A stretch of DNA of 64,000 bases from Solicola gregarius (lineage in GTDB: Bacteria; Actinomycetota; Actinomycetes; Propionibacteriales; Nocardioidaceae), in contig NZ_CP094970.1 in NCBI RefSeq assembly GCF_025790165.1, forward strand, positions 3,162,001 through 3,226,000, in the 5' to 3' direction. A program made the position numbers and the translations under genes. This document shows, in pieces, positions 50,462 to 56,870 of this stretch (the first letter of the stretch is position 1; the number at the start of each line of letters is the position of its first letter). The notes below the pieces were generated by a model that saw only the letters and a program-made list of their open reading frames with translations, ran no database searches and was not told the DNA's origin.

Positions 50462-51703
50462 TCAGCCGCGGCGGCTCTTCAGCCGGCCGAGCAGGTCCGG
50501 CTCGAGCGCGCCGTACCCGGTGCTCGCCCACGGCTCGATCTCGAGTGCGAAGTAGTGCCGCGGTCGCCCGTCGTACGGGAAGTCGAGCACGTCATCGGGC
50601 ATCCGCCCCGCGTCGATGGTGTCGGCGCACGTCGCGCACGCCGGTACGTCGACGCCTGCGGCCGCCCCGCGCCAGCTCACGGTGCGGGTCGAGTCGCCGT
50701 GCAGTGGGTTGAGATAGCAGGGGCGCGTGGGCTCCCACTCCCGGCCGGCGACGGCGGCGTCGAGTGCCGAGTCGCCCCGGGCCGCGAGCACGATGACGCC
50801 GACGGTGTCGGCAGAGGAGTGCGGGCCGTCGAGCATGCGCCGGGCGATCGTGTGGTGCTCGACGGCCTGCTGCCACGCGTCGTCGGCTCGCAGCGACGTG
50901 GACTCCTCGATGCGTGCTCCGAGTGCCGTCAGGGCACGCCGCGCCCTCTTCTCCCGACGCCGACGTTCGGTGGCAAGGGTCGCACCGAGGTTCGGCACCG
51001 GGACCTCGAACCGGCTCGCCGAGCCGCTCGAACCACTCGGATCACCCGACCTGCGCCGGCGTGCCAGCAGTGCGACGCCGGCGGCGACCAGTGCGAGCAC
51101 GACCACGACGCCGATGCCCATCGTGATGCCGGCGCCGGAGTCCTCGGTCGTCGAGTCGGTGCCCTGGCCTGACGTCGTCGTACCGGTGTCGGGCGCCGGC
51201 GTATTCTCCCCGGCCGCCTCGGTTCCTTGCTCACGGTTGCCGTTGTGCTGGCCGTCGCGGTCAGGCTTGTTGAGCCGCTTGTACACAGTGCGCGCATCGC
51301 CCCCGGCGACGAGCCGGGCGGTGTCGACGACCTGGTCGGCCACGCCGTTCGGGTGGCGGAGCTTCGCCGACTCCGTTGCATAGAAGGGATCCGGTGCACG
51401 GCCGAAGGCGTACGCGGCGACCTGGAGGTTTCCGGTGCCCTCGATGCCGATGTACGTGCCATGCGGGTCGACGTGCTTGCGCATCGAGGCGAACAGCTGC
51501 TCGACGTTCCCGTGGAATCGAGGATGGTCGGCGGGGACCTTGATCAGGGCGACATGGATCGGTGGCCGGTGCTCGGCGACGGCCTTCTCGATGAGTCGCT
51601 CGACCCGCGGCGAGAACTTCGAGCGAAGCCCCGGCGAGATCCAGACGCCGTCGCGTCCGAGCTCACGCTCGATCTTGTGCAGGCTCTTGTCATTGATCCT
51701 CAA
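50462..51703 (-). CDS. Membrane protein, paralogue 4 of the CYxNPLHG family
   Basis: A 413-residue protein I cannot assign to a named family. An N-terminal globular domain (about 1-145; GVWISPGLRSKFSP, HVALIKVPADHPRFHG) is TPM-like in pattern and has no signal peptide. A Ser/Thr/Gly-rich linker, one transmembrane helix (191-214) and a basic stretch follow. The cytoplasmic domain has CYLNPLHG (329-336), CATC (356-359) and WASTGYG (392-398). The last domain and the overall order repeat in the two larger upstream genes. TTG 51703 with GGCGAGG upstream is the likely start. Confidence 0.75.
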   Translation of the reverse strand: MRINDKSLHKIERELGRDGVWISPGLRSKFSPRVERLIEKAVAEHRPPIHVALIKVPADHPRFHGNVEQLFASMRKHVDPHGTYIGIEGTGNLQVAAYAFGRAPDPFYATESAKLRHPNGVADQVVDTARLVAGGDARTVYKRLNKPDRDGQHNGNREQGTEAAGENTPAPDTGTTTSGQGTDSTTEDSGAGITMGIGVVVVLALVAAGVALLARRRRSGDPSGSSGSASRFEVPVPNLGATLATERRRREKRARRALTALGARIEESTSLRADDAWQQAVEHHTIARRMLDGPHSSADTVGVIVLAARGDSALDAAVAGREWEPTRPCYLNPLHGDSTRTVSWRGAAAGVDVPACATCADTIDAGRMPDDVLDFPYDGRPRHYFALEIEPWASTGYGALEPDLLGRLKSRRG

Positions 51704-51881
51704 CGATGCCTCGCCGATGGGCTCTGGGCGTTGGGACCTACGTTGCTGATCTGTTTGGACGACATCGAAGCGTTTCGTTCAATCCTTGATCTCATGTGTG
51801 CGCGGCCACGAGACCGATGCGCTGGGACGAGTGCGGTGATCGTATCGGATCGCTGCCGACGCGCCCCTCGTCCCTCACTCC

Positions 51882-53006
51882 TCACGACTCCCGCAGCCGG
51901 CCGAGCAGATCGGCGTCGAGCGATCCATAGCCCGTGTCGCTCCAGGGCGGCAGGTCGAGCGAGAAGTAGTGCTGGGGTACACCCTCGCTGACGAAGTCGA
52001 GGATGTCGTCGGGTGTGCGCCCTCCGTCAAGGGAGTCCGCGCACGCCGCGCACGCGGGTACGTCGACGCCGTTGTCGCCTCCCCACTGGGCGGTACGCAC
52101 CGCGGCGCCGTGGAGGGGATTGAAATAGCACGGGGTGACCGCGGTCCATTCGTCGCCGTCGAGTGCGGCATCGAGTGCGGAAGCGCCGCGCTCGGCGAGC
52201 ACGATCGCTCCGACGATGTCGGCCGGAGCCGACGATCGGTCGAGGATCCGCCGCGCCTGCCCGTAATGGTCGAGTGCCGCCTGCCAGGCGTGGCTGGCGC
52301 CACTCATCGGTGCGTCGTCGATCCGCTCGCCTAGATGCAGTACGTCGTCGTTCGCACGTTTGTGCAGACGCTGTTCTTCGGCCGCACGGATGGTCGACAT
52401 GACATTCGTCGGAAGGGCGAAGCCGTCCTTCGCGCGGCGCTGCTTTCGTACGAGCAGCCCGATACCGATCGCCACGACGACTGCGGCGACCACGAGCCCG
52501 GCGACGAGGCCGACGCCCAGTCCGGAGTCGTCGGACGACTGCGTGCCTCCGGGGACCGATCCCGACTCCTCCAACCGGTTGTACACCTCGAGGGCAGTGC
52601 CGTTCTCGATCAGGCCGATGGTGTCGACGACCTGGTCGGTCAGATCGTCGGGATGTCTCGCCTCGGCCGCCCACGCGGCGTACATGGCGTCGTCGTCGCC
52701 TCCGATCGAAGTCGCTGTGACGGCCGGCTTCTCGTAGTTCTCCAACCCCAGGAACGTGCCCTGAATGCCCGTGTCGTTGCTGACGATGGTGAACATCGCC
52801 TCGACATCGCCATGCAGCATCGGGTCGTCGTACGGGACCTCCACGAGGGCGACGTACACGTCTTCCTTCGCGTCGTCGACGGCGTGCTCGATCCGGTCCT
52901 CGTCGGCTCGGGAGACGCTCGAGCGAAGGTCGGGCGAGACCCACACCCCGTCGTCCTGCAGCGCGTTCTCGATGCGCTTCAGCGGTACGTCGTCGTCGGC
53001 AGTCAT
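51882..53006 (-). CDS. Membrane protein, paralogue 3 of the CYxNPLHG family
   Basis: A 374-residue paralogue of the 50462 product. The N-terminal domain (about 1-145) has GVWVSPDLRSSVSR and YVALVEVPYDDPMLHG. The transmembrane helix is at 162-186, and the C-terminal domain has CYFNPLHG (293-300), CAAC (319-322) and WSDTGYG. Conserved Cys/His positions suggest metal binding in the cytoplasmic domain (inference). Its ATG overlaps the previous stop (ATGA); a 178-nt gap without recognisable features separates it from the 51703 gene. Confidence 0.78.
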   Translation of the reverse strand: MTADDDVPLKRIENALQDDGVWVSPDLRSSVSRADEDRIEHAVDDAKEDVYVALVEVPYDDPMLHGDVEAMFTIVSNDTGIQGTFLGLENYEKPAVTATSIGGDDDAMYAAWAAEARHPDDLTDQVVDTIGLIENGTALEVYNRLEESGSVPGGTQSSDDSGLGVGLVAGLVVAAVVVAIGIGLLVRKQRRAKDGFALPTNVMSTIRAAEEQRLHKRANDDVLHLGERIDDAPMSGASHAWQAALDHYGQARRILDRSSAPADIVGAIVLAERGASALDAALDGDEWTAVTPCYFNPLHGAAVRTAQWGGDNGVDVPACAACADSLDGGRTPDDILDFVSEGVPQHYFSLDLPPWSDTGYGSLDADLLGRLRES

Positions 53007-53638
53007 GCCGGTCTCCGCAACGGGATCGCGATCCAGACGATGAACAACAAGGCGAGGTACGCACCGGCAGCGAACAGCACGCCGGCGGCGAACCCGCCGC
53101 CGGGTCCACCCCAGAAGTCGGAGCCTTCCACGAGCGGTTCCTCCGGTTGCTGTGCGACCGCCGAGGCATAGCGTTCGAGCGCGACGTGATCACGGCCGAG
53201 CAGCGTGTCGGTGTCGATGTAGGCGAATCCGACACCGCGGCTCGTCTCGCTCGCGCTCAGGCGTTCGTCGACGATGGCGTACAGGCCGTCCTCGCCGATG
53301 TGGTCGGCGATGATGTCGACGGCGTTGTAGTTCTGGTAGTAGCCGGCGCTGGTCGTGTCCGTCATGTACGCCAGGTAGAACGGCTGGTCGGCCGACTCGA
53401 CCGCCTGCTGGATGTCGGCGAACTGGCGATCGGTGAGCCGGTGACGGAGCTCGGGTGCGACGTAGAACGAGTCCTGTTCGAGCCCTTCCATCGCGGCCGC
53501 GAGCCGGTCACCGGGCTCGATGTCGGCGGCGGACGCCTTGTCAGTCGGGCGGTTCGTCAGGACGACGGCGGCGATCGCGGCAGCGACGAGCCCGGCAATG
53601 GCGGCGATTCCCCACGCCAGTGGCCACGACAGCTTCAT
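53003..53638 (-). CDS. Short membrane paralogue lacking the CYxNPLHG domain
   Basis: A 211-residue protein with an N-terminal signal anchor (about 5-27). Its external domain resembles the N-terminal domains of its neighbours (SFYVAPELRHRLTDRQ, FYLAYMTDTT). A second transmembrane helix lies at about 178-203. The cytoplasmic Cys-containing domain is absent. It overlaps both neighbours by ATGA, so stoichiometric co-expression with the larger paralogues is likely. Confidence 0.78.
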   Translation of the reverse strand: MKLSWPLAWGIAAIAGLVAAAIAAVVLTNRPTDKASAADIEPGDRLAAAMEGLEQDSFYVAPELRHRLTDRQFADIQQAVESADQPFYLAYMTDTTSAGYYQNYNAVDIIADHIGEDGLYAIVDERLSASETSRGVGFAYIDTDTLLGRDHVALERYASAVAQQPEEPLVEGSDFWGGPGGGFAAGVLFAAGAYLALLFIVWIAIPLRRPA

Positions 53639-54912
53639 CGCATCGACTCCAACACGAGGTCGCCGAGGTCGTCGGCAACGCTTCCGAATCCAGTCCGGGC
53701 CCACACGTCGTCGCGCTCGTAGTACGGACGTTTGCGGCGCCCGTCGGGTACGACCAGCACGTCCGGCGTGCGCCCCGACTCCTGCTTTTGCTCGCACGCG
53801 ACGCACACCGGGACGCGCAGCTCCGCGTCGCCGAACTGCCAGCCGACTTGCGTCGCGCTCTCGCCGTGCAGAGGGTTGAAGTAGCAGCATCGGTACGCTT
53901 CGGAGTCCGCCGACTCGCACGCGCGGACGACGTCACGGCGCCCAGACCGCGCGAGAACCAGGGCGCCGACGACGTCGGCGAGGTCGTCGCTGTCGCGGAC
54001 ATGTTCGGAGGCGTCGCGTGCCAACATCGCCTGCTGGGCGTACTCGGGATGAGGTACGTCGGCGGGGGCGCGCGCCAGGTCCTGGACGAGCTCGGTGAGC
54101 TCGTGTCCGGCGCGGGTGCGTACGTCGTCGATGCTGATCTCGACGGCCTGCGCGCGCGGCTTCGACTGCTTCGGGTCGCGTCGCCGTCGTGGCCACGCGT
54201 TCCGCAACGTCTGTTGCCCGACGAGCAGGACGAGCAGGCCGATCGTCGTCGCCGCCATCCACACGAAACCCGTGCGTGAGTCCGGCGCAGGGCCCACGAG
54301 CTCGGCCGTGGAAACGTACGCGTGCGGGATCTGTGCGAGCTCCTCGACCTCGTCACCGGACATCGTGGCGTACGAGTCGGCCCCCGACTCCGGGGGCGGA
54401 TCGTCGGCCGAGCGCAGTGCGATCTCCGCGGCGACGGGCGGCGAGAGAGCCCGGATTCTGTCGCCATGTGTGTCGGTCAGGCGCTCGTTCACGAGCCGTG
54501 AGTTGTCCGACGACATCAGCGACAACGTCGTGCCGTCGACGTCGACGCCCCACGCCTCCACCTCCAAGGTTCCGTCCGAGGTCTGCACGACGTACAGACC
54601 CGGTCGACGGAGTTGGTTGTGCAACACCTGAATGAGATAGCCCGACGGATCGTCCGTCTGCTCCTTGACTTCTTGCGGTACGTTCACGAGCGCGACGTAA
54701 GTGTCGAACGGTAGGCCTGCCGCCAGCTCGGCGAGTCGCCGCTTCGCGCCCGCGGTATCGCCGGCGCCCATCCTCTCGTGGACGAGGATCGGATCGTCCT
54801 CGAGCGTGTCGACGATCTCGCCGACGGTACCGGCGTAGTCGTCCGCGCCGGCGGGTGCGGCCATGGCGAGACAGCCGACCGCGCACAACGCGGCCACTAG
54901 GGCGCGTCCCAC
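53635..54912 (-). CDS. Secreted-domain membrane protein, paralogue 1 of the CYxNPLHG family
   Basis: A 425-residue protein: signal peptide about 1-23 (GRALVAALCAVGCLAMAAPAGA), extracellular TPM-like domain (about 28-170; TYVALVNVPQEV, RLVNERLTD), transmembrane helix 215-232, then a basic cytoplasmic domain. That domain has CYFNPLHG (343-350), VPVCVAC (Cys 370 and 373) and WARTGFG (404-410). It is the first gene of the operon and the only member with a cleavable signal. GTG 54912 is chosen for the signal peptide; longer frames exist upstream. The 181-nt gap to the carboxylase gene shows nothing I can name. Confidence 0.78.
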   Translation of the reverse strand: MGRALVAALCAVGCLAMAAPAGADDYAGTVGEIVDTLEDDPILVHERMGAGDTAGAKRRLAELAAGLPFDTYVALVNVPQEVKEQTDDPSGYLIQVLHNQLRRPGLYVVQTSDGTLEVEAWGVDVDGTTLSLMSSDNSRLVNERLTDTHGDRIRALSPPVAAEIALRSADDPPPESGADSYATMSGDEVEELAQIPHAYVSTAELVGPAPDSRTGFVWMAATTIGLLVLLVGQQTLRNAWPRRRRDPKQSKPRAQAVEISIDDVRTRAGHELTELVQDLARAPADVPHPEYAQQAMLARDASEHVRDSDDLADVVGALVLARSGRRDVVRACESADSEAYRCCYFNPLHGESATQVGWQFGDAELRVPVCVACEQKQESGRTPDVLVVPDGRRKRPYYERDDVWARTGFGSVADDLGDLVLESMR

Positions 54913-55093
54913 AAACCTGCGTCGATCAGGGAGCGGGTCTCCGCGCCCGATCCGGCAAGGCGCGGGAGCGCTGGCGTAGCCCGTCCCTACTTCGAGCGAC
55001 CGCAACGAAGCTGGGCGGGATGCGGAGGCACGCGAGCCGGCGGGGGTTTGCGGGACACGCCCTAGGGCCCGAGACAACGAATGCAAGCCCGCG

Positions 55094-56870
55094 TCAGCCC
55101 TTGATCTCGCAGATCGCGCTTCCCGCCGTGACCGTCGCGCCCGGGTCCGCGTCGAGCCCGGTGATCGTGCCCGACTTGTGGGCGTTCAGCGGCTGCTCCA
55201 TCTTCATTGCCTCGAGCACGATCACGAGATCGCCCTCGGCGACCTGCTGGCCCTCCTCGACCGCGACCTTGACGATCGTGCCCTGCATGGGGGACGTGAG
55301 CGCATCCCCACTGGCGGCCGCGCCGGCCTTCTTCGAGCCTCCGCGTTTCGGCTTCCGCGTCGCACCTGCACTCGACGCGACCGCGCCGAGCCCGCCGGGG
55401 AGAACGACCTCGAAGTCGCTTCCCGCCGACCTCGACGGTGATCCGCTCGCGCTCCTGCTCCTCGACCGGCTCGGTCGCGCCGTCGTACGGCGGGATCTGG
55501 TTGTCGAAGTCGGTCTCGATCCAGCTCGTGTACACGCCGAACGACGTCCCGTCGCCGACGTACGCGGGATCGTCGACCACCGTGCGGTGGAACGGCACGA
55601 CGGTGGGCATCCCGTCGACGACGAACTCGTCGAGCGCGCGTCGCGAGCGGGCGAGAGCGTCGTCGCGACTGCGTCCGGTGACGATCAGCTTCGCGACCAG
55701 CGAGTCGAACGACCCGGGGATCGTCTCGCCCTCGACGTACCCGGCGTCGACGCGTACGCCCGGGCCGGACGGCGGGCGCCAGGCCGTGAGGGTGCCGGGT
55801 GCGGGCAGGAAGCCCCGGCCGGCGTCCTCGGCGTTGATGCGGAACTCGATCGAGTGTCCGACGATCTCGGGATCGTCGTACCCGAGCTCCTCGCCGGCGG
55901 CGATGCGGAACATCTCGCGGACGAGATCGAGGCCGGTGACCTCCTCGCTGACCGGATGCTCGACCTGCAGCCGGGTATTGACCTCGAGGAACGAGATGGT
56001 GCCGTCCTGGCCGACCAGGAACTCGCACGTACCCGCACCGACGTACCCCGCCTCGCGCAGGATCGCCTTGCTGGACTCGTAAAGCGTGGCCAGCTGGTCG
56101 TCGGTCAGGAACGGCGCGGGCGCCTCCTCGACGAGCTTCTGGTGGCGGCGCTGCAGCGAGCAGTCGCGGGTCGACACGACGACGACGTTGCCGTGCTTGT
56201 CGGCCAGGCACTGTGTCTCCACGTGTCGTGGACGGTCGAGGTAGCGCTCGACGAAGCACTCGCCGCGCCCGAAGGCCGAGACGGCCTCGCGTACGGCCGA
56301 CTCGTACAGCTCGGCGACCTCCTCACGGTTGCGGGCGACCTTGAGCCCGCGTCCGCCGCCGCCGAACGCGGCCTTGATCGCGATGGGCAGCCCGTGCTCG
56401 TCGGCGAACGCGACCACCTCGTCGGCGCTCTCGACCGGATCCTTGGTGCCGGGTACGAGCGGCGCTCCGACCCGTTGCGCGATGTGTCGTGCCTGCACCT
56501 TGTCGCCGAGCGCCGTGATCGCCTCGGGCGGCGGGCCGATCCAGGTGAGTCCGGCCTCGCCGACGGCCGTGGCGAAGTCGGCGTTCTCGGCCAGGAAGCC
56601 ATAGCCGGGGTGCACGCTGTCGGCGCCGCTGCGGGTGGCGACCGCGATGATCTTGTCGATCGACAGGTACGAGTCGCCGGGCGTCGCGCCGTCCAGGGAG
56701 TATGCCTCGTCGGCCATCCGTACGAAGACCGCGTCGCGGTCGGGCTCGGCGTAGACGGCGACGCTCGCGATGCCGGCGTCTTTGCACGCGCGGATGACCC
56801 GGACGGCGATCTCGCCGCGGTTCGCGACCAGAACCTTGGTCAGCGGGCGGTCACCTTGGTGCTTGCTCAC
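55094..56870 (-). pseudogene. Acyl-CoA carboxylase alpha chain (biotin carboxylase-BCCP), frameshifted
   Basis: Biotin carboxylase (about 1-460; [40 protein letters not shown]) is intact to VEVGGKR. One extra base around 55415-55418 then shifts the frame. The correct continuation ([15 protein letters not shown]... then [16 protein letters not shown] and biotin site LEAMKMEQP) lies in another frame ending at 55094. Read literally, the shifted product ends at 55062 without a biotin site. This could be a sequencing error or a true mutation. Intact, it would carboxylate acetyl- or propionyl-CoA with a separate beta subunit not in this window. Confidence 0.85.

What the first reader, a model, noticed from the sequence alone, without database searches (positions are those of the whole stretch)
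50462..54912. Uncharacterised operon of four paralogous membrane proteins with TPM-like outer domains and a CYxNPLHG/CxxC cytoplasmic domain
Four tandem genes, three of them joined by ATGA overlaps, derive from one ancestor: an external domain with the [YH]xA[LY] pattern, one helix, and in three members a cytoplasmic domain. That domain shows CY[FL]NPLHG, a CxxC pair, RxPDxxL and W-x2-TG[YF]G. One member has a cleavable signal and one lacks the cytoplasmic domain. Retained divergence suggests a hetero-oligomeric complex. Conserved Cys and His residues suggest a metal site. I know no described system like this.
Basis: partly seen in the sequence, partly recalled or inferred. Interest (0 to 1): 0.68.

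Follow-up and report, generated by a model that had tools for sequence, protein, structure and literature searches.

The report
Zinc-finger TPM-like membrane protein operon
Four neighbouring bacterial genes encode related membrane-spanning proteins with an outer domain predicted to be shaped like known membrane-complex assembly factors and, in three of them, an inner domain with a strictly conserved metal-type site; the family has no name in the two general libraries searched, and in some relatives it sits beside the membrane-repair gene pspA.

Summary
Confirmed: four paralogues (A, B, C, C') on the minus strand at 50462-54912, A-B and B-C joined by ATGA. No Pfam or NCBIfam model is met. Among 42 loci gathered by likeness to gene C, 40 have the order A-B-C (at most 38 distinct genomes: Nocardioides, Mumia, Kribbella, Phytoactinopolyspora, Solirubrobacter and others); the two others, Streptomyces, have fusions. 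C' is a genus-level copy of C. A single-gene form is more widespread in Actinomycetota. AlphaFold2 models C with pLDDT 87; its outer domain matches TPM-fold structures (best Z 10.8), among them respiratory-supercomplex subunit MSMEG_4692, though sequence comparison does not detect this. The inner domain has the knuckle-hairpin-helix order of a treble clef; its ligands Cys, His, Cys hold in 128 of 128 sequences, the fourth is Cys (89) or Asp (39). pspA lies within 5 kb of the family gene in 9 of 35 genomes examined, but in 0 of 11 of the window's own class, and not beside the window operon. Best reading: a trans-membrane adaptor for envelope stress or membrane-complex assembly, probably hetero-oligomeric. 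Anatomy is well supported; function is inferred.

The parts
53635..54912 (-). Gene A: signal peptide, outer domain, one transmembrane helix, helical part, treble-clef-like domain (motif CYFNPLHG at about 53863-53886)
   Evidence: start GTG is a choice; signal peptide by eye
53003..53638 (-). Gene B: N-terminal hydrophobic segment, outer domain, C-terminal transmembrane helix, no cytoplasmic domain; ATGA overlap with A
   Evidence: found with A and C in 40 of 42 loci
51882..53006 (-). Gene C: outer domain, one helix, helical hairpin, treble-clef-like domain; no signal peptide seen; ATGA overlap with B
52554..52991 (-). Outer TPM-fold domain of gene C (residues about 6-151)
   Evidence: AlphaFold2 model; structural matches
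52443..52511 (-). Transmembrane helix of gene C (residues 166-188), followed by a basic stretch (RKQRR), so the C-terminal side is probably cytoplasmic
   Evidence: orientation inferred from charge
52026..52130 (-). Treble-clef-like core of gene C, ligands C293, H299, C319, C322
50462..51703 (-). Gene C': genus-level duplicate of C, TTG start, 178-base gap after C
   Evidence: four-row clade of C and C' of the window and its sister species G001, support 100/99

Best explanation
The operon encodes single-pass membrane proteins whose outer domains have the TPM fold and whose inner domains (A, C, C') end in a zinc-type treble clef. Most likely A, B and C assemble into a hetero-oligomer that joins the two faces of the membrane: the outer domains hold or check an extracytoplasmic part of a membrane protein complex, and the inner treble clefs bind a cytoplasmic partner of the envelope-stress or repair machinery (PspA-type or another). 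It would work as a non-enzymatic assembly or quality-control adaptor. Shown: gene order, common ancestry, invariant ligand set. Predicted: TPM fold, treble clef, orientation. Inferred: hetero-oligomer, zinc, partner, function.
For: A-B-C order in 40 of 42 loci. Fusions in the two others: the A protein of L064 holds two outer domains, the second scoring best with the profile of B (57 bits, against 50 and 49 for C and A), and L081 holds two inner domains in one protein. A and C separate almost fully on a 54-row tree (2 and 3 label changes, shuffled means 16.8 and 17.7). Fold of the outer domain: 5anp Z 10.8 (2.8 A over 123), 2kpt 10.2, 3ptj TLP18.3 9.7, 7tbr 9.2, 8c7i Psb32 8.4, 6adq_J 8.0; 6adq_J is MSMEG_4692/DUF5130 of the CIII2CIV2 supercomplex. 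Proteins of this fold are linked to complex assembly: CcoZ of C. jejuni, whose loss lowers cbb3 oxidase activity (PMC8267372, passages); TPM partner of PspA, proposed chaperone-like (PMC11237479, passages); TLP18.3 at photosystem II (PMC13089150, passages). Ligands C, H, C in 128 of 128, fourth C in 89 and D in 39 (sequences were collected with a profile that contains these residues). Knuckle, hairpin, helix order in the model. pspA within 1.1 kb of the inner-domain match in 8 and at 4.3 kb in 1 of 35 genomes, in five families (positions); PspA and PspAA confirmed by Pfam in one, L126. No outer-domain column filled in 80% or more of 45 rows is acidic in more than 67%, against an enzyme.
Against: The window operon is 1.6 Mb from the genome's only PF04012 match, and 0 of 11 genomes of the window's class examined have the family gene near pspA. 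The 9 positive genomes are related in part (three of one genus, three of one family). Neighbours of the operon differ between genera, so no constant partner is seen (recognised by eye). Sequence comparison does not detect TPM homology (probabilities 0.3-8.8%, with only 9 TPM rows) and no Foldseek match reaches E 0.001 (best 0.07). Neither A nor C is one clade: starred branches force at least 2 changes each, because the Streptomyces A proteins (long branches) fall beside Solirubrobacter C. L081 has no recognisable outer domain. In Nocardioidaceae gene C has no signal peptide, so an outer N-domain of about 150 residues would need an unusual insertion. No complex was modelled and no metal tested.
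Confidence: 0.42

Rival explanations
1. A dedicated assembly or stability factor (or extra subunit) of respiratory-chain complexes, like MSMEG_4692 or CcoZ, rather than a stress adaptor.
For: TPM-fold match to supercomplex subunit MSMEG_4692; loss of CcoZ lowers cbb3 oxidase activity (PMC8267372 passages).
Against: I recognised no respiratory-chain gene beside the operon, by eye and without systematic annotation. The DUF5130 homologues read are about 160 residues long and lack the inner domain.
Confidence: 0.22
2. A transmembrane signalling device: outer domains sense an envelope ligand and the Cys/His site is a metal or thiol redox sensor that changes state and passes a signal inside.
For: Two-faced architecture; exchange of the fourth ligand between Cys and Asp.
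Against: Among the neighbour families shared by three or more loci I recognised no kinase, regulator or sigma factor (by eye); the Asp version suits a structural zinc site better than a redox switch.
Confidence: 0.2
3. A TPM acid phosphatase or nucleotidase with an accessory zinc finger.
For: [quoted passage not shown] PMC12419801 calls it unlikely (passage).
Against: No well-filled outer-domain column is acidic in more than 67% of 45 rows.
Confidence: 0.05

Closest known systems
TPM domain proteins (PF04536; YdjH, Psb32, TLP18.3, cg2496; the filing of cg2496 and BA41 is recalled)
   Same: Outer alpha/beta domain of the same predicted fold; single-gene form with one helix and a Gly-rich tail, as in the PF04536 proteins L118 and L119
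   Different: No PF04536 match in the proteins scanned; a treble-clef-like domain; three different paralogues in one operon
DUF5130 subunit MSMEG_4692 of the mycobacterial bcc:aa3 supercomplex
   Same: TPM-like fold, Z 8.0, 3.7 A over 109 residues
   Different: Not detected by sequence; about 160 residues, without the inner domain
PF20381, membrane protein Rv1476
   Different: Gene C itself scores E 0.051, below cut-off; the other PF20381 proteins read (L082-L085, L087) have no Cys/His domain
PSP system with TPM partner (B. subtilis ydj operon: PspA, TPM, zinc ribbons, band-7; PMC11237479 passages)
   Same: Some relatives sit beside PspA, three of the loci read also beside the PspAA-like family; TPM-like fold and zinc-type module combined
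   Different: Here both modules are in one protein; the window operon is not beside pspA

Membership tests
TPM domain family (PF04536) | Sequence match to the curated model above cut-off | tested here: not met
   No match in A, B, C, C', and PF04536 not among the families matched by 45 aligned members
TPM domain family (PF04536) | TPM fold | tested here: met
   Predicted fold only: of the outer-domain matches the best seven are TPM-type entries, Z 8.4-10.8; Foldseek ranks 1-5, E 0.07-0.15
TPM domain family (PF04536) | Conserved acidic metal or catalytic residues (recalled) | tested here: inconclusive
   No well-filled column acidic in more than 67% of 45 rows; the defining residues were not mapped
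PF20381 (Rv1476) | Match above curated cut-off | tested here: not met
   Gene C E 0.051, 13.8 bits against 26; relative L086 28 bits; no match in 11 genomes, own included
PF17174 (DUF5130) | Match to the Pfam model | tested here: not met
   Not among the hits; L121 as positive case, E 7.5e-65
Treble-clef zinc finger | Four conserved ligands, two before a beta-hairpin and two at the start of the following helix | tested here: met
   C-x5-H, hairpin 25-29/35-39, C-x2-C/D at helix 41-48; definition recalled
Treble-clef zinc finger | Structural match to a solved treble clef | tested here: inconclusive
   Only weak rows: GATA-4 Z 2.2; ribosomal, GATA and LIM rows at E 5-10; best row Lsr2, Z 3.5
Treble-clef zinc finger | Zinc bound | not testable with these tools
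   Needs purified protein
PSP (PspA) system | Gene beside pspA in the window's genome | tested here: not met
   pspA at 4822654, operon at about 3212-3217 kb, single-gene relative at 1856 kb
PSP (PspA) system | Relatives linked to pspA | tested here: met
   9 of 35 genomes within 5 kb, 5 families; 0 of 11 in the window's class

The most novel reading that the evidence does not exclude
An undescribed, widespread Actinomycetota family that joins a TPM-fold outer domain to a cytoplasmic Cys-His-Cys-Cys/Asp treble clef across one helix and acts with the PspA (ESCRT-III-like) machinery; in several orders it has split into a three-protein A-B-C hetero-complex that spans the membrane and links envelope damage outside to repair inside.
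Probability: 0.3. Interest if true: 0.75.

Novelty: new variant of a known kind. Interest (0 to 1): 0.55.

Why it matters
The family occurs in at least two classes of Actinomycetota by name (Actinomycetes and, with Solirubrobacter, Thermoleophilia) and in further unnamed families, yet met no Pfam or NCBIfam model here. If it is a PspA or complex-assembly partner, it gives a defined, testable trans-membrane component for envelope maintenance in that phylum, and would show how TPM-fold proteins, suspected assembly factors, talk to the cytoplasm.

Tried and rejected
Family searches. Pfam and NCBIfam on the window proteins and relatives gave nothing over cut-off; (no cut-offs shown) gave five unrelated names, each in 1 of 45 members, best E 0.0034. 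PDB profile searches gave nothing significant. PF20381 was met only by L085, L086 and L087, of which only L086 has the Cys/His domain. Direct TPM homology by hhalign was not significant; the TPM alignment had 9 rows, seven DUF5130-like by eye, so this is a weak test. I first thought the Rv1476 family was the supercomplex subunit; one search did not support that, and searches showed it is DUF5130. For the inner domain the best PDB row, the Lsr2 dimerisation domain (Z 3.5, 44 residues), was set aside as a hairpin-plus-helix resemblance. A functional link to the flanking carboxylase genes was set aside, since other genera have other neighbours; a carboxylase gene also precedes a single-gene relative in L032, perhaps old synteny. 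Plasmid search: one Streptomyces record, no annotation there. Literature: searches found no description of the family; one search was swamped by the word Streptomyces and says nothing. PMC8361435 was looked into for MSMEG_4692 without a hit; PMC10888442 (Rv1476) was seen as abstract and outline only. Occurrence outside Actinomycetota was not tested, beyond the pattern-limited scan of genome contigs, whose 32 loci all bear titles of Actinomycetota organisms.

Selections and dropped rows. The 42 loci were gathered by likeness to gene C (9 regions chosen, 32 loci, the window), so they are not a random sample; L023/L052, L024/L053, L025/L058 and L062/L063 appear to be the same organisms. The profile labels A of L062 and L063 as C; I call it A by position. 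The tree used 20 of the 32 loci L050-L081, without A of L061 (frame broken), plus the window, G001 and 8 single-gene relatives. One search set aside 2 of 130 rows that do not cover the ligands and removed duplicates only by identical last 150 residues, so near-copies remain. In one search only up to 17 candidates a genome were scored, so 33 of 296 is a lower bound; in the class rescanned without that limit the same hits came back (8 of 24). Of the 33 genomes with a hit, 30 went into with 5 others; three genomes of one genus were left out. Several genomes are in many contigs, which can hide a pspA neighbour (in G238 the gene lies at a contig end). The binomial chance treats genomes as independent, which they are not.
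Full report
What is there. On the minus strand lie four genes in the order A (53635-54912), B (53003-53638), C (51882-53006) and C' (50462-51703). A/B and B/C overlap as ATGA; C' follows C after 178 bases with a TTG start. A has a signal peptide, an outer domain, a helix and an inner domain; B has an N-terminal hydrophobic segment, an outer domain and a C-terminal helix; C and C' have an outer domain, a helix and an inner domain, without a recognisable signal peptide (by eye).

One family, old paralogues. Profile-profile comparison of the outer domains gives probabilities of 99.4 (C-A), 99.4 (C-B) and 98.3 (A-B). The order A-B-C is found in 40 of 42 loci gathered by likeness to gene C (at most about 38 distinct genomes). 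Named organisms among them are Mumia, Nocardioides, Phytoactinopolyspora, Kribbella and Solirubrobacter. The two exceptions are Streptomyces: in L064 the A protein (689 residues) has two outer domains, the second fitting the B profile best, followed by a C gene; L081 is one protein with two inner domains and no recognisable outer domain. ATGA-type overlaps recur, for example in L021 and L023. On a tree of 54 rows A and C separate almost fully (2 and 3 changes; shuffled means 16.8 and 17.7), but neither is one clade: the long-branched Streptomyces A proteins fall beside Solirubrobacter C. The nine single-gene relatives form one group (100/100). C' of the window and of its sister species G001 arose from C within the genus (four-row clade 100/99). 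So the conserved core is three genes.

The wider family. In one search, 32 of 39 genomes (own included) have some match to gene C, 33 of 296 genomes drawn across the phylum match the inner domain, a lower bound. Of 13 proteins printed, nine have a Gly-rich tail, L110 has no outer domain and L089 is of the operon type; the common form, read by eye, is signal peptide, outer domain, helix, helical part, Cys/His domain, Gly-rich tail. A similar tail is seen in the PF04536 proteins L118 and L119. The five single-gene relatives of the window's order printed lack the outer domain. Nothing reached a Pfam or NCBIfam cut-off, except PF20381 (Rv1476) in L085, L086 and L087. L086 also carries the Cys/His domain, and its outer part matches the outer-domain profile weakly (15 bits), which ties PF20381 to this family by architecture in one protein.

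Outer domain. AlphaFold2 on 45 aligned sequences gives a confident model of C (mean pLDDT 86.7, pTM 0.63). Foldseek ranks TPM-type structures 1 to 5, at E 0.07-0.15; no match reaches 0.001. The VIA second look gives seven TPM-type entries at Z 8.4-10.8 and two more at 7.3-7.6, and the mycobacterial supercomplex chain 6adq_J at Z 8.0 (3.7 A over 109 residues); the filing of some of these entries as TPM is recalled. A sequence search identified that chain as MSMEG_4692, DUF5130. Sequence comparison with PF04536 is negative, so membership of that family is not claimed; the shared fold is.

Inner domain. Predicted alone it keeps its shape (pLDDT 86.2, pTM 0.76): a C-x5-H knuckle, a beta-hairpin, and a helix that starts with C-x2-C, the order of a treble clef. 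Across 128 sequences that cover the site, C, H and C never vary, and the fourth position is C in 89 and D in 39. The sequences were collected with a profile containing these residues, so a form without them could be missed. Such conservation with a Cys/Asp exchange is what a structural metal site would show. No solved structure matched well.

Context. Around the operon the neighbours differ by genus, so they say little. For the single-gene form outside the window's class the context is informative: pspA lies within 1.1 kb of the inner-domain match in eight genomes (G083, G116, G119, G152, G162, G205, G268, G290) and 4.3 kb away in G221, of 35 examined (31 with pspA). The neighbours in L126 were confirmed as PspA (E 1.3e-26) and PspAA (E 3.3e-34). 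Under independence this would be extremely unlikely, though related genomes are not independent; five families are involved. Against this, none of the 11 genomes of the window's own class shows it, and the window operon is far from its pspA.

How it most likely works. TPM-fold proteins are tied to membrane-complex assembly: loss of CcoZ lowers cbb3 oxidase activity in C. jejuni, and CcoZ resembles MSMEG_4692 (PMC8267372, passages); TPM proteins accompany PspA and were proposed to be chaperone-like (PMC11237479, passages; PMC12419801, one passage); TLP18.3 was cross-linked to Psb27-H1 of photosystem II (PMC13089150, passages). I therefore favour a non-enzymatic trans-membrane adaptor: outer domains bind a membrane protein complex, inner zinc-type domains bind a cytoplasmic partner. 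Lack of conserved acidic residues in the outer domain argues against a phosphatase. A hetero-oligomer of A, B and C is inferred from linkage, old divergence and fusions.

Verdict. A real, conserved and unnamed family, and a split, duplicated version of it in the window. The parts are recognisable (TPM fold, treble-clef-like site); the combination and the three-gene set are not, as far as the libraries (Pfam, NCBIfam) and papers searched show. I rate it a new variant of a known kind, interest 0.55.

Noticed in passing
window 54896-55065: Dispersed repeat of about 170 bases directly upstream of gene A, with near-palindromic ends (by eye); at least 44 matching stretches in the genome, itself included. 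The GTG start chosen for A lies inside it.
   Followed up: partly
window 55062-56870 and 55094-55288: The acyl-CoA carboxylase alpha gene upstream seems frameshifted: the carboxylase part and the biotin domain are in different frames, whereas the sister species has one 591-residue ORF. Could be an assembly error.
   Followed up: no
L030:7036-7830 (same genome, 1856 kb): A single-gene relative directly follows a large multi-helix ORF that looks like an MMPL transporter (by eye), in the window's genome and in its sister species (L031).
   Followed up: no
L062:9072-10067: In Solirubrobacter an SPFH/band-7-like ORF (by eye) lies near A-B-C on the other strand, recalling the TPM, PspA and band-7 neighbourhoods in print.
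   Followed up: no
L086:781-2544: One protein carries both a PF20381 (Rv1476) match and the Cys/His domain, with pspA next to it; this could help to place the little-understood protein Rv1476.
   Followed up: partly
window 52950-53006 and homologues: Gene C has no recognisable signal peptide in Nocardioidaceae and Phytoactinopolyspora, while Kribbella, Solirubrobacter and Streptomyces versions have one (by eye); how the N-domain crosses the membrane is unclear.
   Followed up: no
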